Origin: Marinobacter sp. LA51
Lineage (GTDB): Bacteria > Pseudomonadota > Gammaproteobacteria > Pseudomonadales > Oleiphilaceae
Length of the DNA: 64,000 nt
Direction of reading: 5' to 3'
NCBI RefSeq assembly: GCF_030297175.1
Contig: NZ_AP028070.1
Span: 3,162,001 to 3,226,000 of the forward strand
In this document: one piece after another, positions 35,592 through 45,595 of the stretch
Layout of the letters: the number at the start of each line of letters is the position of its first letter
Numbering within the stretch: position 1 is the first letter of the stretch
The notes under the pieces: model-generated
Database searches by the model: none
What the model was told of the DNA's origin: nothing
Seen by the model: only the letters and a program-made list of their open reading frames with translations
Program-made: the position numbers and the translations under genes

Positions 35592-35670
35592 AGCCCCAGC
35601 CAGACTAGCCCTCTCCATACCTGTTGTCGGCCTCAAATGGCACATCAGGTATGTCGCGTCCGCACTCTCT

Positions 35671-35698
35671 TTGCACAGTTTTTAATCAGGCCTATACT
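35671..35698 (+). promoter_or_regulatory. Candidate promoter of the wax ester synthase gene
   Basis: TTGCAC and TATACT separated by 16 bases, with the start codon 35 bases beyond the -10. It lies after smpB, so the synthase is likely expressed separately. Confidence 0.6.
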
Positions 35699-35732
35699 CG
35701 GGGGTTCCCGAGGCCTTGCAAAGGGAGTGCAA

Positions 35733-37163
35733 ATGTCTCTCACCCCCTCGAATACCCGAACACCCATGGCGGCCGTCGATCGCGCATGGCTGCGCATGGA
35801 CAGCCCGGAAAATCCAATGATGGTCTGCAGCTTGTTGGTGCTGGACCGCCCGATTTCCGTGAATCATCTCAGACGCACGCTGGAAGAGCGGCTTCTGCGT
35901 TTCCGTCAGTTTCGCCAGAGGATAGTCGACACCGGCGACCGCGCGTACTGGCAGGATGACCCGTCCTTTGACCTGGACAACCACCTGCACACCGTTGCCC
36001 TGCCCGGCAAGGCAGACCAGGCCCAGCTGCAGAAACTGGTGGGCGACCTGAACAGCACCGCACTGGATTTCCGGCGGCCACTCTGGCAACTGCACTACAT
36101 CGACAATTACCAGGGCGGCAGCGCACTGCTGATCCGTATCCATCACTGCATTGCCGATGGCATTTCGCTGGTGCGGGTGATGCTATCCCTGACCGACAAA
36201 ACCCCGGAGCCGATGCTTCCGAAAGTTGCGGTGCGTTCGGCCGCGCCTGCGCCGAAACGATCATGGCTGCAATCGACGCTTCACCGGGCGGTGGACAACA
36301 TTCAGGCCGCCACCTACCAGACCCAGCTGTTTATCCAGTCGGTTCGTGAAGATCCGAAATACCCGGCCAAACTGGCGTCCACCGCCGGCAGTGTCGCGCT
36401 CGATTTGCTCAAGCTCGGGCTCGCGCCGTTCGAGCCGGAGACCGGATTGCGACGCCCCCTGTGCGGGCGCAAACACGTCGCCTGGGCCAAACCGCTGGAT
36501 CTGGACGAAGTTAAAGCCTGCGCCAAGGCCCTCGGCGGCACCGTGAACGATACTCTGATGTGTACCGCCACCGGGGCCCTGCAGCGCCACTTCGCCGCCC
36601 GTCGCGAAGATGTGCCCGAGTGCGGCCTGCGGGTTGCTGTGCCATTCAACCTGCGACCACTGAACCAGCCGATTGAAATCCTCGGCAACAAGTTCGGCCT
36701 GGTGCTGGTGAACCTGCCGGTGGAGGTTCAGGATCCGTTCATGTGTTTCCGGCAGGTGCAGGAAAACATGAACCGCCTGAAGCGCTCTTACCAGGCGCAG
36801 GTGACCTACAGCCTCCTTGATCTGTTTGGCCGTGGCCCCGACGCCCTGGAGCGCAGGGCCCTGGGTTTGCTGAGCAACAAGGCCTCCGCCGTGCTGACCA
36901 ACGTGCCGGGCCCCAAGGAGCCGCTGTACATGGCCGGCGCCAAGGTCACCCAGCCGATGTTCTGGGTGCCCCAGAGCGGCTCAATCGGCATAGGCATGAG
37001 CATCTTCAGTTATGCCGGCACCGTGCAGTTCGGTATCACCGTGGACAAGAACATTCACGCCGATCCGGACGAGATCATGGCGTACTTCCAGGAAAGCTTT
37101 GAAGCCCTCAGCCACGTCGCCCTGGCTGGCCGGCGAGGCGCCATTGAACGCAAAGCGGGCTGA
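35733..37163 (+). CDS. Wax ester synthase/acyl-CoA:diacylglycerol acyltransferase
   Basis: A WS/DGAT enzyme that esterifies fatty alcohols or diacylglycerol with acyl-CoA to make storage wax esters or triacylglycerol. It has 476 residues. The condensing motif HHCIADG (137-143) is intact; other family landmarks are DRAWLRMDSPENPMMVCSLL near the start, GTVNDTLMCTATGAL, NLRP, and SNVPGP-like TNVPGPKEPLYMAGAKV. The start at 35733 has AAGGGAG seven bases upstream; the longer frame begins inside the promoter. Marinobacter strains typically hold several paralogues; which one this is cannot be told. Confidence 0.93.
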   Translation: MSLTPSNTRTPMAAVDRAWLRMDSPENPMMVCSLLVLDRPISVNHLRRTLEERLLRFRQFRQRIVDTGDRAYWQDDPSFDLDNHLHTVALPGKADQAQLQKLVGDLNSTALDFRRPLWQLHYIDNYQGGSALLIRIHHCIADGISLVRVMLSLTDKTPEPMLPKVAVRSAAPAPKRSWLQSTLHRAVDNIQAATYQTQLFIQSVREDPKYPAKLASTAGSVALDLLKLGLAPFEPETGLRRPLCGRKHVAWAKPLDLDEVKACAKALGGTVNDTLMCTATGALQRHFAARREDVPECGLRVAVPFNLRPLNQPIEILGNKFGLVLVNLPVEVQDPFMCFRQVQENMNRLKRSYQAQVTYSLLDLFGRGPDALERRALGLLSNKASAVLTNVPGPKEPLYMAGAKVTQPMFWVPQSGSIGIGMSIFSYAGTVQFGITVDKNIHADPDEIMAYFQESFEALSHVALAGRRGAIERKAG

Positions 37164-37252: not shown

Positions 37253-37617
37253 GGGGACGACATGGCTTCGACGCTGGTGGCGAACCCTTGAGTGCATGTC
37301 GAGATGGCAGCCAATCTCGTTAATCCAAAGCTGCAACGCAATAGTCGCAAACGACGAAAACTACGCACTAGCAGCGTAAGCTGCTAGTCGTCCTGACTGG
37401 GTCGCCCGTAGCCCAGAGCTACATCTCAGGACGTCATCGCTTACGGGATGCTCCGTTATCCAGAGCTCACTGGTTAACGGCTAAGATATAAAGAGATCGC
37501 TTCTTGCACCCTGACCTTCGGGTCGCTTGAAGTTAAATTAATAGAGGGACGCTATGCATGTAGACTCTCAAGGTTGAGTACTGGCGGACGCGGGTTCAAT
37601 TCCCGCCGTCTCCACCA
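37253..37617 (+). ncRNA. ssrA: Transfer-messenger RNA
   Basis: tmRNA rescues stalled ribosomes and tags the unfinished protein for proteolysis. The 365-nt gene begins GGGGACG and ends CGTCTCC-ACCA, which pair as the acceptor stem; CCA is encoded. The T-arm reads GGGTTCAATTCCC. The tag frame 37347-37379 encodes ANDENYALAA followed by TAA, preceded by the conserved AATAGTC. Several internal pseudoknot stems are evident in the middle. No integrase or prophage follows the 3' end, a common attachment site. Confidence 0.98.
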
Positions 37618-38559: not shown

Positions 38560-39447
38560 ATGCTCACTAAAACGAAACAGGCCCAGAAATTACTGCTGTT
38601 TCGGTTGTCCGGTGACCGGTTATTCGGGATTGGCACCCTGAAGATTCGGGAAATCCTGCCGTTCATGCGTTTGAGCAAGCTGCCTCACAGTCACCACGCC
38701 GTTATTGGCACTGCGATGTTTCGTGGTTCTGCGGTGCCAGTCATCGACATGGCCGCTGCTGTGGGGCACCCCCCACTGACTCCGGACGAACAGGCCAAAG
38801 CATCCATCATCATTACCGACATCCAGCGCCAGGAAATCGGGTTTCTGGTGCGCGGCGTGAATCAGATCATCGAGGCCGACTGGAAACAGGTAATGCCGCC
38901 ACCCAAGGCGCTGGGCGAACGAGCCTTCATCACCGGCCTACTGGACCGCGAAGGCGACATCATCCAGTTGCTGGATGTGGAGCTGTTGCTGGCGAAGGTG
39001 TATCCGGAATCCCTGCTTACCGAGGATGTGGCGCTCACCGATGTTCAGAGCGAAACCCTGAAGGCGCTGAACATCCTGCTGGTAGACGATTCCCAGGTGG
39101 CCCGTAAACAGCTGTCGGATGCCCTGGACAGCAAGGGCATTTCCTACCAGGTGACGTCTAACGGTGATGAAGCCTTACAGATTCTGCTGACCAACGATGA
39201 GCTGAACAAACCCATCGATATCCTGGTCAGCGATATCGAAATGCCTGGGCTGGATGGCTACGAACTGACGTTCAATCTCCGCGACAACGCAGCCGTGAAA
39301 CAGCCCTACGTGATTCTCCACACCTCACTGAACAGTGAGATGAGCCTGAGCTACGCCAACCAGGTGGGCGCCAATGAGGCGCTCACCAAGTTCGATGCCA
39401 AAGAGCTGCTGCAGGCCATGTTGCGGGGCGCCGATCAGGCCCGGTAA
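38560..39447 (+). CDS. cheV: Chemotaxis coupling protein CheV
   Basis: CheV links chemoreceptors to CheA through a CheW-like domain and can be tuned by phosphorylation of its receiver domain. It has 295 residues: CheW domain at about 10-155 (LLLFRLSGDRLFGIGTLKIR) and REC domain at about 170-292 (NILLVDDSQVARKQL, phosphoacceptor Asp in ILVSDIEMPG, LHTS, Lys in ALTKF). No other chemotaxis gene is adjacent. Its stop abuts the stop of the convergent lipoprotein gene with no bases between. Confidence 0.93.
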   Translation: MLTKTKQAQKLLLFRLSGDRLFGIGTLKIREILPFMRLSKLPHSHHAVIGTAMFRGSAVPVIDMAAAVGHPPLTPDEQAKASIIITDIQRQEIGFLVRGVNQIIEADWKQVMPPPKALGERAFITGLLDREGDIIQLLDVELLLAKVYPESLLTEDVALTDVQSETLKALNILLVDDSQVARKQLSDALDSKGISYQVTSNGDEALQILLTNDELNKPIDILVSDIEMPGLDGYELTFNLRDNAAVKQPYVILHTSLNSEMSLSYANQVGANEALTKFDAKELLQAMLRGADQAR

Positions 39448-40329
39448 TCAGCCCTCGGCGGTCAGGCTTTCGCGCAGGTCGGCAAAGAACGCGTTGGTTT
39501 CAGCGCGAATCTCGTCCAGCTGAGCTTCCCAGTCATCTTTGTACCGATTGTAGGTTTGCGCACTCAGCTGGGTGAACCGCTCGCCAGTCTCGCCCAGGGT
39601 GCGGCTGGCCTGCGCTAGGGTCTCCATGGTGGGCTCTTCCAGTGACTTGACCTCTTTACTCAGGCTGCGGGAGGCCTGCTCCAGAATCACTCGGTCTTCA
39701 GGCGTTGCCTGCTCACCCTGCTCCAGCGCTTCGTTGATTGACTCCTGCAGTTTCTCGATGGCCTGCTGCATCAGTGCACCAAAGTCCTCAACGGCATCCC
39801 GGGTCTTGCGCTCTACTTCCGCCGAGTAAGCCTCAAAGTTGCGGGCAAACTCGTCCATGCTGGCTTCAATGTCGTCCGATGACGAGGAGAAGCTGCTAGA
39901 AAGTTTCTCGCCCAGCTTATTCAGTTCGCCCATGAGATTGCCGAACATTGATGGCCGTAGGAGCGCATCCTCAGTGCGGTCATAATCCACCTGCCAGGTC
40001 TCGGGCTCTTTGATCAGAAAGGTGATCAGCTCCTGGTGCTCACCTTCCTTACCGTATTCCGGCGGCAGCCGAGTGACTACAGAGGCTTCCTGCTCATCGA
40101 TCACCACCCGACCGTAAGACGGTTCAATGCCGGTCCAGTCTTTGCGGAAACCATCAAAGTCATCGGGAGAGCTAAGAGTAGAGAATTCGGCGACGGCATC
40201 GGCGTTGTTTTCAGCGACGGCCTGCCAGAATGCTTCCGCCACTTGCTGGGGGGTTTCCGGTTTGCTGCAACCGGCCAACACCAACAGGGCTATGGCTGCG
40301 AACAGGCATCGGAACAGGGACTGGTTCAT
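39448..40329 (-). CDS. Lipoprotein with NTF2-like N-terminal domain and coiled coil
   Basis: A 293-residue lipoprotein of unknown function. The signal ends in LLVLAGC with lipidation at Cys21. Residues about 25-125 (TPQQVAEAFWQAVAENNADA) resemble DUF4878/NTF2-like domains, and residues 135-290 are strongly helical and acidic with coiled-coil character (EDFGALMQQAIEKLQESINE). No enzyme motif is seen. It lies 70 bases after the acetolactate synthase gene in the same direction and may be the last gene of that set. I do not recognise a named family. Confidence 0.75.
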   Translation of the reverse strand: MNQSLFRCLFAAIALLVLAGCSKPETPQQVAEAFWQAVAENNADAVAEFSTLSSPDDFDGFRKDWTGIEPSYGRVVIDEQEASVVTRLPPEYGKEGEHQELITFLIKEPETWQVDYDRTEDALLRPSMFGNLMGELNKLGEKLSSSFSSSSDDIEASMDEFARNFEAYSAEVERKTRDAVEDFGALMQQAIEKLQESINEALEQGEQATPEDRVILEQASRSLSKEVKSLEEPTMETLAQASRTLGETGERFTQLSAQTYNRYKDDWEAQLDEIRAETNAFFADLRESLTAEG

Positions 40330-40399: not shown

Positions 40400-42073
40400 C
40401 TACAGCCGGCAGGTCAGGTCGGCAAGTTCCTCATCAAACACCCGCCGGTTCTCGCTATAATCCACCGGCACGTCCACCAGGTGCACACCGCCATTCCCCA
40501 GCGCGGATTCCAACACCGGCCGCAAATCCTCGGTGCGGGTTACCCGGTGACCGGTGGCGCCATAGGCATCGGCGTATTTGACGAAATCCGGGTTTTGGTA
40601 GTCCAGGCCAAAGTCCTGAAAACCTTCCTGGGCCTGCTTCCACTTGATCATGCCGTAGGCGCTGTCGTTAATGATCAGCACCACCAGGTTGAGGTTCAGG
40701 CGAACGGCTGTCTCCACCTCCTGGCTGTTCATCATGAAGCCACCGTCGCCACAAATCGCCATGACCTTCTGATGCGGGTATAGCATGGCCGCCATCATGG
40801 CGCTGGGCAGGCCGGCGCCCATGGAGGCCAGGGCGTTGTCGAGCAGCACGGTGTTGTTGTCGTAAGCTGGATAATTGCGCGCAAACCACAGCTTGTACAT
40901 GCCGTTATCGAGGGCAATGATGCCGTCGTCCGGCATTACCGCACGCACGTCGCTGACGATGCGCTGGGGAATGATCGGGAACCGGGGATCGTCGGCGCGA
41001 TCCTTTAGATGTTCGTCCACTGCCGCTTTCACTTCCATGAACCAGGTGAAGTCGTGGCTGCCACAGTGGCCGCAGTGCTCGGCCATGTATTCCACGCTGT
41101 TGGCTATATCGCCCACCACCTCATGCTGGGGGAAATACACCGGATCTACATCGGCACCGCTGAAGTTCACGTGGATGACCTGCTTGCCGCCGGGTTTCAT
41201 GAAGAACGGGGGCTTTTCGACCACATCATGGCCCACGTTAATCACCAGGTCGGCATGGTCGATGGCGCAGTGCACAAAATCGCCCGAGGAAAGCGCGGCA
41301 TTGCCCAGATATCGGGGATGCCGTTCATCCACCACACCTTTGCCCATCTGGGTGGTGAAGAACGGAATGTTAGTCACGTTGACCAGGTGAATCAGCGCCT
41401 GCGACACCCGTTTCCGGTTCGCCCCCGCACCGATCATGATCAGCGGGTGCTTGGCCTGGCGCAGCATGTCGCAGGCCATCTCCAGGCTTTTGACACTGGC
41501 GGAGGGGCGCCTCGCATCACTGGGCTCAAAGATATGGGTGTCCGAATCCGGTTGCTCGTCGGCGATGTCTTCGGGTAATTCCAGATGCACTGCGCCGGGC
41601 CTCTCCTCCAACGCCAGCCGGAAGGCCTCTCGAACTTTCGCAGGAATGGTGTTGGCGTTGCTGATCTGACGGGTGTACTTGGTCAGCGGACGCATCAGAT
41701 CCACCACATCGAGGATCTGGAACAGGCCCTGCTTTGACGATTTGATCGGCTTCTGGCCTGAGATCATCATCATGGGCATACCACCAAGCTGGGCATAAGC
41801 GGCGGCGGTTACCAGATTGGTGGCACCCGGGCCCAGGGTGGAGAGACACACGCCAACCCGACCGGTCAGCCGTCCATAGGTGGCGGCCATGAAGCCGGCG
41901 GCCTGTTCGTGGCGGTTCAGTACCAGCTGGATATTGGATTTCCGCAATGCTTCCAACAAAGCAAGGTTCTCTTCCCCCGGCACACCAAAGAGGTACCGCA
42001 CTCCTTCGTTCTCCAGGGCGCGGATGAACAGCTCAGCCCCGTTGCGCGCCTCCGTGGTTAGCTCCGTTGTCAT
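40400..42073 (-). CDS. Acetolactate synthase-like thiamine diphosphate enzyme
   Basis: A 557-residue ThDP enzyme of the acetolactate synthase large-subunit type. The catalytic Glu is in FGVPGEENLALLEAL, the middle domain has LIMIGAGANRKRVSQA, and the cofactor motif is GDGGFMMNSQEVETAV with the metal-binding Asn in IINDSAYGMIKWKQ. No regulatory small subunit gene (ilvN/ilvH) follows, and no alsD is seen, so a biosynthetic isoleucine/valine role is doubtful; a catabolic AlsS-like or a different carboligase role is possible. It follows the Cys-His-Asn protein gene by 89 bases in the same direction. Confidence 0.88.
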   Translation of the reverse strand: MTTELTTEARNGAELFIRALENEGVRYLFGVPGEENLALLEALRKSNIQLVLNRHEQAAGFMAATYGRLTGRVGVCLSTLGPGATNLVTAAAYAQLGGMPMMMISGQKPIKSSKQGLFQILDVVDLMRPLTKYTRQISNANTIPAKVREAFRLALEERPGAVHLELPEDIADEQPDSDTHIFEPSDARRPSASVKSLEMACDMLRQAKHPLIMIGAGANRKRVSQALIHLVNVTNIPFFTTQMGKGVVDERHPRYLGNAALSSGDFVHCAIDHADLVINVGHDVVEKPPFFMKPGGKQVIHVNFSGADVDPVYFPQHEVVGDIANSVEYMAEHCGHCGSHDFTWFMEVKAAVDEHLKDRADDPRFPIIPQRIVSDVRAVMPDDGIIALDNGMYKLWFARNYPAYDNNTVLLDNALASMGAGLPSAMMAAMLYPHQKVMAICGDGGFMMNSQEVETAVRLNLNLVVLIINDSAYGMIKWKQAQEGFQDFGLDYQNPDFVKYADAYGATGHRVTRTEDLRPVLESALGNGGVHLVDVPVDYSENRRVFDEELADLTCRL

Positions 42074-42162: not shown

Positions 42163-44187
42163 TTACTGAGTCAGCGGCGGCTGCGCCTGCAGAGCATCGG
42201 CAGGCAACCGATCTTCGCCCCAGCTGCGGTGAACCCCGGCAACCACCCGCTGCAGTTCGTCGTCGCCGACATCTGCAGGTTCGCCCCGCTCCAGCGGATC
42301 GTAATGGAAGATATACAGCCGGGACGTGAACTGCTCAAACGGCAGCGACGACTCGCCAAATCGCTCACCACAACCGGCAGTACTAACACGCACTTCGTCA
42401 CCCCAGTTCTGACCACTGTCGTTATTGGGGTTAAAGAAATAGACCCGCATCAGGCCTTCCGGGTCCAGTGCCACCCGCAGAATGGTGATGGCGTGCCAGC
42501 CGATAAAACGTGCGGCACTGTCGGTCACAGCCACACCGGCGGGCTGGGGGTGAATCAGCGGCTGATTGCCGTTGTAGTAGGGGTGGTAGCTGGCGTAGAA
42601 GTGCCGGATGAAGCCCTCGAGGTCATCGAGCTTACCGGTGGCCACGTCCACGTTGATGGCGAAGCCCCGGCCGGCGGACCAGCCATGGAATTCAGGGTTT
42701 ACCCACCGGTGCGGATCGCCCTCCCGGCCGCCCACCATACGTCCCATTTCAGCGTAGATTCGGTCCAGGTGCGGCACCACCACCAGCGACACCGGATCGA
42801 GATCCAGCGTCACCTCAGAGGCAACACCACCACGACTGTGCGCCGAGGACACCGGTTTGCCTTCGAAGTGCATGATGATTTCGTTATCCCGCGCGGCCCA
42901 GGCCACCATCTGCAACAGATAGTCCGGATCGTTGTAGGCCCACATGGACAGCGCCCGTGCCGATTGGCAGGTCGGGTTGTTGCCCTGCCCTACACCCAAC
43001 GGCTGACCGAGCATGTTCAATACGCCCTGCACCAGCCAGGCACCCGGCTGAGGGTGGTAGCCGTACGCCAATTGCAAGCGCTCGCGGGCGTCCGGGCACA
43101 GCGACAATCGAGCCTGGCGCCACAGCGCCGGCGCGACCGGAGGCTGGTACAGAATACCCCGCTCCAGCATCAACGCCAGACCGTAAAGGCCCTGGGCGGT
43201 TTCCGGATACACGCCCTCGCGAATCAGCGTGCATACCAGCTCCCGATAACACAGCAGGCAATCCCGCCCGGTGCTCGACAAGCCCAGGGCTTCGGTCAGC
43301 AGGGCGTCCTGGTCGTCCAGGATGAAGCGAACGAAGCTGGCGTGGTAAGGCGACACCAGACCGGTGTCGTGCATAGCACGAGCAAAGCCCGTGGCCTCAT
43401 TCTGCAAGGCCTGGGCATCCATGGACTCCAGGCGCTGCTCGTATACGACGGTCCCCGGATCCTCGCTGCAGGCGCGAGTTGGCCCCCAGAGACTGGAAAT
43501 TAATCGATCGGCACCCCGGCCGGCCCCGCCCAGGTCAGCGTGGGGATCGGCCCGACAGATGGCGATCTGGGTGATCATTTTACGCACGTCGGAAACCTGG
43601 ATCGGACGCTGTTGAAGAATGCGCCAGATTTCCTCGATCAGACTATCGATCACATGTTCGTAGCCAATGTGGTGGGCAACGTACTGCACCACCGATTGGC
43701 TGATCTGCGACAACTTACCCTGCTCTCGCTCCGCTTCGCCGACCATACCAAACAGCAGGCCAAGATTAATGGCCAACACTTGCGTGAGGTAGTGGTGAGC
43801 CTGTTCGGCGGAGACCGACGGATGCAGGTAAAAGCCCCTGGCAACCGCCAGCAAACGCAGTTCGCTGAAAGCCTCGATAACCACCGTGTCGGCGTTCTGG
43901 CTCTGCAGCGAATGCGTTGTGAGAGTAGGGAGAAGAATGCCGGGTTCGGCCCAGTCAGTGCCCAGGTAAACGCCCGCCAATTCCAGACGCTCCGCGCGCT
44001 CTTCGATAACTCGGCAGCCTTCCGGCTGCATCAATACCCGACGGGCAATATCGAACACGCGCGGGAGTTTGCCGGCCTTGGCAAAAGGCCGGCTTTCCTC
44101 CAGTACCTGGATTGCGTCATCCAGTTTTTGCACCAGTTTGTCAAAATTGACGACTGGCACTGCGCTGCCCGGTTGGTGATCGTTCAA
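42163..44187 (-). CDS. Uncharacterised 674-residue protein with a possible Cys-His-Asn triad
   Basis: I do not recognise a named family. It lacks a signal peptide and membrane segments, so it should be cytoplasmic. The N-terminal 390 residues are mostly helical. The C-terminal part looks like a papain-like fold: Gln401 six residues before Cys407 (GQGNNPTCQSARALSMWA), then His565 (FIGWHAITIL) and Asn586 (VYFFNPNNDSGQNWGD). The Gln-to-Cys spacing of six matches papain (Q19/C25). Whether it is a peptidase, amidase or transglutaminase-like enzyme is inference. It lies 54 bases after an ATP-grasp ligase gene and before an acetolactate synthase, all on the same strand. Confidence 0.7.
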   Translation of the reverse strand: MNDHQPGSAVPVVNFDKLVQKLDDAIQVLEESRPFAKAGKLPRVFDIARRVLMQPEGCRVIEERAERLELAGVYLGTDWAEPGILLPTLTTHSLQSQNADTVVIEAFSELRLLAVARGFYLHPSVSAEQAHHYLTQVLAINLGLLFGMVGEAEREQGKLSQISQSVVQYVAHHIGYEHVIDSLIEEIWRILQQRPIQVSDVRKMITQIAICRADPHADLGGAGRGADRLISSLWGPTRACSEDPGTVVYEQRLESMDAQALQNEATGFARAMHDTGLVSPYHASFVRFILDDQDALLTEALGLSSTGRDCLLCYRELVCTLIREGVYPETAQGLYGLALMLERGILYQPPVAPALWRQARLSLCPDARERLQLAYGYHPQPGAWLVQGVLNMLGQPLGVGQGNNPTCQSARALSMWAYNDPDYLLQMVAWAARDNEIIMHFEGKPVSSAHSRGGVASEVTLDLDPVSLVVVPHLDRIYAEMGRMVGGREGDPHRWVNPEFHGWSAGRGFAINVDVATGKLDDLEGFIRHFYASYHPYYNGNQPLIHPQPAGVAVTDSAARFIGWHAITILRVALDPEGLMRVYFFNPNNDSGQNWGDEVRVSTAGCGERFGESSLPFEQFTSRLYIFHYDPLERGEPADVGDDELQRVVAGVHRSWGEDRLPADALQAQPPLTQ

Positions 44188-44241
44188 ACGACGTTCCTCA
44201 GGGCCTGCACCAAACCCGTTTGTAGTTAATGCTTCTCCGGA

Positions 44242-45474
44242 TTATACATAGAAATCGAGTTCTTCCTGATGTTTCAGCAGATCCCGCATGGTGTAGGGAT
44301 CGTCACCGAAGAAGTACACCAGACCCCAGTGGGTGCCGAAGGCAGTCCGCTTGGTCACGGTTTCTTCCAGCGGCGGCGTCAGCTCGTGCGACTCGAAATA
44401 CTCGTGGTTTTCGGTCTCCTCGGGAATCTCCAGCTTGCTGACCACCCGGCGACGCGGGTAAACACCAAAGCAACCTGCATAACCCTTGGCATCGACCACT
44501 TCTTTCGGGAAGAACGCTTTGACTTCCTCGGCCGTGGTCTTCGGATCGAAGGTCATGATCAACCCCTGGTAGGCGTTGAAGCCATAGGCGCGCTCAAGCA
44601 ACTCAAAAACTTTGAACCCCGGTGGACGATAAGCCACCTCGCCAAAGTACATGGTGCTGTCGCTGGTCACGAAATATTCCGGGTGAATGAAGCCAAAATC
44701 GATGTCGAAGGTCTTGATCAGCTTCTCGATTTCGCCCCGGATCTGGTCACGGTATTTCTCAAGGTCCGGTGTCGCCGGTACGAACACGGAGTAACCCAGG
44801 GTGACGTACTCGGAGATGTTCAGGAACGCGATCTTGCCGTTGTGAATCCAGGCCTCAACCGCAAATTCCCAGCCATCAAGGTGCGATTCCATCAACACCG
44901 GAAATTCTTCTTCCGGAATGGTGTCGACTTCATCGGGGGTACGAATAACCCGGTGGCCAAGGCAACCCGCCTTATCGAAGGCTTTGAGGTGAATCGGGTC
45001 GTTGGGGTCACCGTCCAGTTTGAGCAGGGTCTGGTTGACCCGCTTCAGGAAACGAATGACGTCGCCCTTGTCGTGCGCCTCTTCGAAGATACCCACTCGG
45101 ATACCACCAAGTTGGGCGCGGCGCTTCATCAGGGCCTTGTCACGCAGAAGCATGGCCTGACCAAACAACTTGGGCTTGTCCATGAGTACGGAGTTGATCG
45201 CACCCGCCCATTCGACGGTTTCCTCAAACAGTGGGATGGACACGTCTACGCCCATCTCTTTCAGAGTCTGGGCAATTTCGACGGAGCGATCGTTCAAGCG
45301 TTCGAAATTCCAGGGCACGTAGGGGATATCGTGCTCTTTGCAATAAGCCTCAGCCCAGTCCGGAGCGACAACCACGTAGCGTCGGTCAAACTTGTCCGCG
45401 GCCTCAATGGCATTCAAACTCCAACCGAGGAGTGCAATATACCCCTTATCCGGATTGTACTTTTGCTCGCTCAT
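44242..45474 (-). CDS. ATP-grasp superfamily ligase
   Basis: A 410-residue protein with an ATP-grasp core, expected to activate a carboxylate as acyl phosphate and couple it to an amine or thiol. The pre-ATP-grasp Rossmann part is YIALLGWSLNAIEAADKF; the ATP-binding lobes include FPVLMESHLDGWEFAVEAWI, and the metal loop reads GEVAYRPPG (278-286), where Ala replaces the Asn of the common EINPR form, a variant also seen in PurK-like and dipeptide-ligase-like members. Substrates cannot be predicted. It is transcribed with the downstream Cys-His-Asn protein, and the pair recalls ligase/amidase couples such as glutathionylspermidine synthetase/amidase; that is analogy only. Confidence 0.8.
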   Translation of the reverse strand: MSEQKYNPDKGYIALLGWSLNAIEAADKFDRRYVVVAPDWAEAYCKEHDIPYVPWNFERLNDRSVEIAQTLKEMGVDVSIPLFEETVEWAGAINSVLMDKPKLFGQAMLLRDKALMKRRAQLGGIRVGIFEEAHDKGDVIRFLKRVNQTLLKLDGDPNDPIHLKAFDKAGCLGHRVIRTPDEVDTIPEEEFPVLMESHLDGWEFAVEAWIHNGKIAFLNISEYVTLGYSVFVPATPDLEKYRDQIRGEIEKLIKTFDIDFGFIHPEYFVTSDSTMYFGEVAYRPPGFKVFELLERAYGFNAYQGLIMTFDPKTTAEEVKAFFPKEVVDAKGYAGCFGVYPRRRVVSKLEIPEETENHEYFESHELTPPLEETVTKRTAFGTHWGLVYFFGDDPYTMRDLLKHQEELDFYV

Positions 45475-45556: not shown

Positions 45557-45595
45557 AAAAACAAAGGGGCCGCTGGTTTGTATTCCAGCGGCCCC
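45557..45595 (-). terminator. Terminator of mqo
   Basis: On the minus strand GGGGCCGCTGG / CCAGCGGCCCC with an 8-nt loop is followed by TTTGTTTTT. It lies between mqo and the ATP-grasp gene, so the latter has its own promoter or read-through. Confidence 0.92.

What the first reader, a model, noticed from the sequence alone, without database searches (positions are those of the whole stretch)
42163..45474. ATP-grasp ligase paired with an unrecognised Cys-His-Asn protein and a ThDP carboligase
Seen in sequence: three same-strand genes (ATP-grasp 410 aa, 674-aa protein, acetolactate synthase-like 557 aa) with gaps of 54 and 89 bases. The 674-aa protein has Gln401/Cys407 at papain spacing, then His565 and Asn586. 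Known: ATP-grasp enzymes join carboxylates to amines, and ligase/amidase pairs exist (glutathionylspermidine synthetase/amidase). Inference: the set may build or recycle an amide-linked small molecule or modify a peptide, with the ThDP enzyme supplying a ketol precursor or being unrelated. I know no named pathway with this trio.
Basis: partly seen in the sequence, partly recalled or inferred. Interest (0 to 1): 0.7.

Follow-up and report, generated by a model that had tools for sequence, protein, structure and literature searches.

The report
ATP-grasp, papain-fold and HDAC-type enzyme trio
Some marine and salt-loving bacteria carry a very conserved enzyme predicted to build an amide bond, usually next to an unnamed enzyme with the active-site pattern of papain that is predicted to break one, and most also have a histone-deacetylase-like partner, which points to an undescribed amide-making and amide-breaking pathway.

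Summary
The window (a Marinobacter chromosome) has an ATP-grasp gene (45474-44242, -) 54 bases upstream of a 674-aa gene (44187-42163, -) that matches no Pfam, NCBIfam or PDB sequence. Gln401, Cys407, His565 and Asn586 are invariant in 103 aligned sequences and in 130 locus copies. The C-terminal part folds confidently alone; its nearest solved structures are papain-like. The genes are a near-obligate pair: in two samples (274 and 398 genomes, a few shared) exactly the same 8 and 11 genomes hold both, as same-strand, convergent or divergent neighbours. In 8 Marinobacter genomes whose linked ligase is lost or broken, all 8 keep a second intact ligase elsewhere. The ThDP gene is not part of it (34 of 80 loci, Marinobacter-type surroundings only). 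A third partner emerged: a class II HDAC-type amidohydrolase, adjacent in five genomes, whose full-length form is in 30 of 36 genomes with the 674-aa gene and 0 of 314 without. Best reading: a make-and-break amide system, most likely on a small amine conjugate; substrate unknown, polyamine link weak. Protein modification is the main rival. The superfamilies are known; the combination and the 674-aa family appear undescribed in what I could search.

The parts
44242..45474 (-). ATP-grasp carboxylate-amine ligase (410 aa), first gene of the pair
   Evidence: ORF; PF13535 weak hit; L-amino acid ligase PDB hits; full-length orthologues 74-100% identical
42163..44187 (-). 674-aa papain-fold protein (TTG start), second gene of the pair
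   Evidence: ORF; no Pfam, NCBIfam or PDB sequence hit; model pLDDT 89.8, pTM 0.87
43093..44151 (-). N-terminal all-helical region (about residues 13-365), ARM/HEAT-like by weak structural matches
42202..43062 (-). C-terminal papain-like catalytic domain (residues 376-662)
42985..42987 (-). codon of Gln401 (oxyanion-hole position)
   Evidence: invariant
42967..42969 (-). codon of Cys407 (nucleophile; N-terminus of helix 407-419)
   Evidence: invariant; secondary structure
42493..42495 (-). codon of His565 (in strand 561-574)
   Evidence: invariant; secondary structure
42430..42432 (-). codon of Asn586 (just after strand 580-585)
   Evidence: invariant; secondary structure
45566..45595 (-). terminator-like hairpin between malate:quinone oxidoreductase and the ligase gene (edge of the unit, not a part)
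   Evidence: 11-pair stem with 10 G-C pairs followed by a T-rich tail, (10 such sites found, 5.6 expected in shuffles; this one has the longest stem)
40400..42073 (-). acetolactate-synthase-type ThDP enzyme: neighbour, judged NOT part of the system
   Evidence: directly downstream in 34 of 80 loci, absent there in 44, undecidable in 2

Best explanation
The two genes are the core of a make-and-break amide system. The ATP-grasp enzyme activates a carboxylate as an acyl phosphate and couples it to an amine. The 674-aa protein uses Cys407-His565-Asn586, with Gln401 in the oxyanion hole, to cleave or transfer the same or a related amide through an acyl-enzyme. A separate class II HDAC-type Zn amidohydrolase removes an acyl group in the same pathway. 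The substrate is most likely a small amine conjugate of marine and halophilic bacteria; polyamines or diamines are candidates, weakly supported. Shown: the pair's co-occurrence, linkage in three orientations, invariant catalytic residues, papain-like fold of the model, association of the HDAC-type protein. Inferred: every reaction, its direction and the substrate.
For: Co-occurrence: the full-length 674 protein and the ATP-grasp orthologue are in the same 8 of 274 class genomes and the same 11 of 398 phylum genomes (G000 and some pair-less genomes are in both samples); the ligase is also in 3 of 3 genomes of another class that hold the 674 gene (one of them, G286, was already in the phylum sample). 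Linkage: 71 of the 80 best-matching named loci have an intact ligase directly upstream; of 105 linked pairs 89 are same-strand, 12 convergent, 4 divergent, and the distance matrices of 59 non-redundant pairs correlate (r 0.83, 0 of 2000 permutations as high). Rescue: 8 of 8 Marinobacter genomes without an intact linked ligase hold an intact paralogue at 74-77% identity. Catalysis: Q, C, H, N in 103 of 103 and 130 of 130; papain-like neighbours head both fold searches of the domain. HDAC-type partner: adjacent in five genomes; full-length orthologue in 7 of 8 genomes with the 674 gene versus 0 of 266 others and in 23 of 28 versus 0 of 52. Polyamine hint: orphan 674 copies follow potI of a PotFGHI-like operon in two genomes of the same genus.
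Against: No reaction was tested. Neither gene is strictly tied to a neighbour: orphan 674 copies and second ligases without a second 674 gene (G314, G573) exist. The HDAC-type protein is absent from 6 of 36 genomes with the 674 gene, usually unlinked (adjacent in 4 of those 36), and its cut-off was set after seeing the scores. It resembles acetylpolyamine aminohydrolase 3men (124 bits) less than HDAH (about 213 bits), and its loop lacks the HDAC10-type gatekeeper Glu (gatekeeper role recalled). The Pot operon link is seen in one genus only and its Pot genes score below the curated cut-offs. The fold evidence is borderline by score alone (no Foldseek match under 1e-3). The helical N-terminal region and the unusually high conservation of the ligase would also suit a protein substrate.
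Confidence: 0.5

Rival explanations
1. Protein-modification system: the ATP-grasp enzyme adds an amino acid or amine to a protein (like RimK or tubulin-tyrosine-ligase-like enzymes), the papain-fold protein removes it after docking through its helical N-terminal region, and the HDAC-type enzyme deacylates lysines of the same target.
For: The 674 protein has a ~350-residue all-helical region with weak ARM/HEAT-type matches; the ligase keeps 86% mean column identity over 17 sequences down to an invariant C-terminal DFY, which seems high for a small-molecule ligase (judgement, not measured); the third partner is nearer HDAH/HDAC6-type deacylases than acetylpolyamine hydrolase.
Confidence: 0.22
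2. Trans-acylase rather than hydrolase: the papain-fold protein transfers the acyl group of the ligase product to another amine, as phytochelatin synthase does with glutathione, so both enzymes are biosynthetic.
Against: Phytochelatin synthase is tied with C39 peptidase and staphopain and about one Z unit below calpain (8.3), so the fold does not discriminate; orphan 674 copies without a neighbouring ligase lie beside uptake systems in several genomes, which fits breakdown better.
Confidence: 0.15
3. Polyamine-specific version of the best explanation: a split, unrelated counterpart of glutathionylspermidine synthetase/amidase that conjugates and releases spermidine or putrescine.
For: 674 copies 3 and 192 bases after potI-like genes in two genomes of the window's genus, one of them with a gamma-glutamylputrescine-synthetase-like gene about 7 kb away; HDAC superfamily partner, which includes polyamine deacetylases.
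Against: One genus only for the transporter link; the Pot-like and gamma-glutamylputrescine-synthetase-like proteins score below their curated cut-offs; no polyamine-type gatekeeper in the HDAC-type partner; no polyamine biosynthesis gene was noticed recurring beside the pair, but most neighbour genes were not run against a family library.
Confidence: 0.2
4. The pair is only a hitchhiking or syntenic neighbourhood with no joint function.
For: Marinobacter loci are syntenic, and the patchy, cross-class distribution suggests horizontal transfer as a block.
Against: Same genomes in two samples, three relative orientations, co-diverged paralogous pairs and retention of a second ligase where the linked one is lost.
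Confidence: 0.04

Closest known systems
Papain-like cysteine peptidases, clan CA (calpain, staphopain, C39 peptidase, phytochelatin synthase)
   Same: Fold of residues 376-662, Gln six residues before Cys, Cys at a helix start, His in a strand, Asn after the next strand
   Different: No detectable sequence relationship; ~370-residue helical N-terminal part; paired with a ligase
L-amino acid ligases of the ATP-grasp superfamily (4wd3, 3vot / BL00235)
   Same: Best profile matches of the ligase (E 8e-4, 2e-3)
   Different: Remote similarity only over about 120 residues; GEVAYRP replaces the E-x-N motif usual in ATP-grasp enzymes (motif recalled; sequence); next-best ATP-grasp proteins in genomes without the 674 gene are at most 37% identical over part of the length
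Glutathionylspermidine synthetase/amidase
   Same: Idea of an amide ligase plus a cysteine amidase acting on one conjugate (recalled)
   Different: There the two are fused and of other families (recalled); neither family is detected here
Class II HDAC / histone-deacetylase-like amidohydrolase (HDAH, HDAC15, HDAC6)
   Same: Third partner: PF00850 at 311 bits, catalytic region aligned to HDAC6 throughout
   Different: Distinct subfamily with a ~45-residue N-terminal extension and a shortened gatekeeper loop (GFDxHxxD...), found only in genomes with the 674 gene in my samples

Membership tests
Papain-like cysteine peptidase superfamily (clan CA) | Conserved Cys, His and Asn/Asp with a Gln upstream of Cys | tested here: met
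   Q, C, H, N in 103 of 103 aligned sequences and 130 of 130 locus copies
Papain-like cysteine peptidase superfamily (clan CA) | Papain-like fold | tested here: met
Papain-like cysteine peptidase superfamily (clan CA) | Cys, His and Asn side chains within catalytic distance | not testable with these tools
   Model coordinates are not exported; the element order fits
Papain-like cysteine peptidase superfamily (clan CA) | Hydrolase or transferase activity through the Cys | not tested
   Needs an experiment
ATP-grasp carboxylate-amine ligases | ATP-grasp domain by profile | tested here: inconclusive
   PF13535 20 bits, under its 27-bit cut-off for the window protein; many of the 120 listed homologues are precomputed as PF13535; L-amino acid ligase chains E 8e-4
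ATP-grasp carboxylate-amine ligases | Conserved acidic metal ligands and Asn in the C-terminal part | tested here: inconclusive
   E266 and E279 invariant in 17 of 17, but Ala281 stands where the common motif has Asn (motif recalled)
Glutathionylspermidine synthetase/amidase | GSP synthetase and CHAP amidase families, fused in one protein | tested here: not met
   No Pfam family in the 674 protein, only PF13535 in the ligase, separate genes
Acetylpolyamine amidohydrolase (for the HDAC-type partner) | Closest relative among PDB HDAC-fold enzymes | tested here: not met
   3men 124 bits versus about 213 bits for HDAH and HDAC15 (best 60 of 137 shown)
Anti-phage defence system | Match to a PADLOC model | tested here: not met
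   0 families at E 1 for both window proteins and for P0187, whose UniRef name mentions ZorC

The most novel reading that the evidence does not exclude
A three-enzyme code in marine and halophilic bacteria: an ATP-grasp writer, a papain-fold eraser with a helical docking domain and a class II HDAC-type deacylase act on one conserved target, a bacterial parallel of the ligase, cysteine-peptidase and HDAC6 enzymes that modify tubulin; or else a wholly undescribed amide metabolite that these bacteria build and recycle.
Probability: 0.2. Interest if true: 0.85.

Novelty: new variant of a known kind. Interest (0 to 1): 0.6.

Why it matters
A protein family of which 2,825 members passed one search, none of the 240 listed members bearing a precomputed Pfam domain, turns out to look papain-like and to be tied to one ligase and, mostly, to one HDAC-type enzyme. 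That turns three 'hypothetical' or vaguely named genes into a testable pathway, predicts an amide compound or modification not yet known in marine and halophilic bacteria, and gives a bacterial setting for class II HDAC relatives, whose natural bacterial substrates are, as far as I recall, largely unclear.

Tried and rejected
ThDP enzyme as a member: rejected. Malate:quinone oxidoreductase as a member: rejected; a terminator-like hairpin lies between, and the pair occurs without it outside Marinobacter. Defence system: no PADLOC match. The UniRef name 'ZorC EH domain-containing' of one homologue (P0187) was not reproduced by Pfam. A profile search of the 674 family against PDB sequences gave only chance hits, best E 0.44. 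The full-length model gave no clear Foldseek match (best E 0.31), so the C-terminal domain was folded alone. Of 16 regions around HDAC genes outside the pair, 3 (L246-L248) turned out to hold generic HDACs; within four genes of the HDAC no other family recurred in more than 3 loci. Viral contigs: no relative of the ligase. Plasmids: one record for the 674 protein, a 1.83-Mb Halomonas replicon that holds both genes next to each other. The ligase was not searched genome-wide in the other members of G171's order; it was seen beside a 674 copy in 12 of the genomes whose regions were fetched there besides G171, and nothing is claimed for G815, G823, G827 and G829. Partial 674 matches in G273 (E 5e-4) and G837 (E 2.7e-4) were counted as absence. 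Papers: six searches listed no title or abstract start that describes this pair or trio. For PMC10318531 and PMC2922099 I saw search listings and found passages, not the whole texts; Iyer et al. 2009 on ATP-grasp amidoligases is not held and I saw only its reference entry, so it may describe related neighbourhoods.
Full report
WHAT IS THERE. The window lies at 3,162,001-3,226,000 of a 3.77-Mb single-contig genome whose closest hits are Marinobacter. On the minus strand, malate:quinone oxidoreductase (47111-45630) is followed by a terminator-like hairpin (45595-45566), the ATP-grasp gene (45474-44242), 54 bases, the 674-aa gene (44187-42163), 89 bases, and an acetolactate-synthase-type gene (42073-40400). 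The 674-aa protein has no match at E 0.1 in Pfam or NCBIfam and none in PDB sequences at E 10. The ligase has a sub-threshold PF13535 match and, as a profile of 17 orthologues, matches L-amino acid ligases 4wd3 and 3vot at E 8e-4 and 2e-3.

THE PAIR. In 274 class genomes the 674 protein gives a match at E 1e-3 in 9: full-length in 8 and a fragment of about 122 residues at E 5e-4 in G273. In the same 274 the ligase gives a match in 19: 8 at E below 1e-230 (80-100% identity), in exactly those 8 genomes, and 11 at E 4e-19 or worse. In 398 phylum genomes 11 hold the 674 protein; the ligase gives a match in 14, 11 at E below 1e-219 in the same 11 genomes and 3 at E 2e-7 or worse. The two samples share G000 and some genomes without the pair. 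In 152 genomes of another class 3 hold the 674 protein (one, G286, from the phylum sample) and 3 of 3 hold the ligase. Named loci: the 80 best of at least 579 were kept, mostly Marinobacter and Halomonas relatives; 71 have an intact ligase directly upstream on the same strand, 2 are cut by a contig end and 7 lack an intact one. Eight loci with a missing, remnant or split linked ligase (L036, L039, L040, L046, L047, L050, L066, L084) were followed up: 8 of 8 genomes keep an intact second ligase of 74-77% identity elsewhere. Among 105 linked pairs 89 are same-strand, 12 convergent and 4 divergent (in one of these, L134, an overextended ORF makes the genes seem to overlap); for 59 non-redundant pairs the two distance matrices correlate at r 0.83 (0 of 2000 permutations as high), with the ligase much slower (mean distance 0.17 versus 0.41). 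Relatedness of the hosts contributes to that correlation. Exceptions exist: orphan 674 copies and, in G314 and G573, a second ligase without a second 674 gene. Both genes also lie together on a 1.83-Mb Halomonas replicon. Source names list ligase relatives in Streptomyces, Pseudonocardia and Planctomycetota and 674 relatives in Myxococcota, Dehalococcoidia and Thermoanaerobaculia; several are metagenome bins, and co-occurrence was not tested in those phyla.

THE ThDP GENE IS NOT A MEMBER. It is directly downstream in 34 of 80 loci, absent there in 44 and undecidable in 2; all 34 have Marinobacter-type surroundings, one of them in a bin named Halomonas (L051).

A THIRD PARTNER. An HDAC-domain gene is adjacent to the pair in G181 (ligase-674-HDAC, same strand, 6 bases), G811 (674-HDAC overlapping by 4 bases, then a convergent ligase), G260 (674-HDAC-ligase), a gammaproteobacterial MAG (L090: ligase-674-HDAC, cut by the contig end) and G454 (convergent with the 674 gene), that is in 4 of the 36 sampled genomes with the 674 gene and 1 of the 80 named loci; in G399 one lies three ORFs from an orphan ligase. 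HDAC-domain proteins in general are common: all 36 genomes have 2-8 matches, but 9 of 14 control genomes have one too. The specific full-length form, aligning from residue 7 or earlier, is in 7 of 8 genomes with the 674 gene (missing in G160) and 0 of 266 others in the class sample; scores drop from E 8.5e-100 to 3.1e-81. In a second, chosen set it is in 23 of 28 genomes with the 674 gene (missing in G654, G823, G286, G706, G778) and 0 of 52 without, taken from the same orders; the drop is from 3.6e-99 to 3.8e-66. Four of the 52 were also in the first set, so the sum is 30 of 36 against 0 of 314. The cut was chosen after seeing the scores, and the genomes are related, so the counts are not independent events. 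The window's genome has one at 3,688,330-3,689,409, far from the pair. The G181 protein matches HDAC15 and HDAH at about 213 bits, single HDAC6 domains at 168-185 and acetylpolyamine aminohydrolase 3men at 124; two-domain HDAC6 chains top the list at 352-360 because both domains add up. The loop bearing the gatekeeper residue of HDAC6 and HDAC10 (recalled) is two residues shorter, so the Glu that marks the polyamine deacetylase HDAC10 (recalled) is not there.

CONTEXT OF PARALOGUES. Some genomes of the window's genus carry further 674 copies. Two orphan copies follow a potI-like gene, 3 bases after it in L141 and 192 in L140, in an operon with PotF- and PotG-like genes (NCBIfam names, all below the curated cut-offs); L140 also has a gamma-glutamylputrescine-synthetase-like gene (222 bits, cut-off 650) about 7 kb away. 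In the family of G171 a second, orphan 674 clade lies by TRAP-type transporter genes in several genomes and by other genes in the rest.

HOW IT PROBABLY WORKS. An ATP-grasp ligase (amide synthesis), a papain-type enzyme (amide cleavage or transfer) and an HDAC-type amidohydrolase (acyl removal) all act on amides by family and are inherited together. The simplest reading is one pathway that makes, trims and recycles an amide. Small amine conjugates are favoured because the ligase's nearest solved relatives are L-amino acid ligases and orphan 674 copies often sit by solute-uptake genes; protein modification is kept alive by the helical domain and by the ligase's high conservation. No reaction was tested.

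NOVELTY. The superfamilies are known; ligase-plus-amidase pairs are a known kind of system. The 674-aa family as a papain-like enzyme, its ligase and the HDAC-type association were not found in six literature searches, limited to open-licence papers; one likely relevant survey (Iyer et al. 2009) could not be read.

Noticed in passing
window 35637-37163 (+): Protein whose sequence resembles the wax ester synthase/diacylglycerol acyltransferase type known from Marinobacter (by eye and recall; not run against a library).
   Followed up: no
window 37253-37617 (+): tmRNA gene with tag ANDENYALAA, about 1 kb from a CheW/response-regulator fusion gene at 38560-39447.
   Followed up: no
window 39448-40329 (-): Lipoprotein-like protein (by eye) with weak apolipoprotein-type matches, downstream of the ThDP gene and fast-evolving (36-95% identity in the loci).
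   Followed up: no
G874, G875, G876, G877 (loci L084, L050, L047, L039): Decay of the linked ligase in several Marinobacter lineages (remnants or a split frame) while a 74-77% identical paralogue stays intact elsewhere: apparent replacement of one ligase by another.
   Followed up: partly
P0339 and relatives: Ligases 86-87% identical to the Marinobacter protein are listed for Streptomyces bathyalis, Pseudonocardia and Planctomycetota sources: transfer across phyla, misbinning or exceptional constraint.
   Followed up: partly
L244:10871-11413 (G435): A GNAT acetyltransferase gene sits 44 bases upstream of one HDAC-type partner gene: a possible writer for the deacylase.
   Followed up: no
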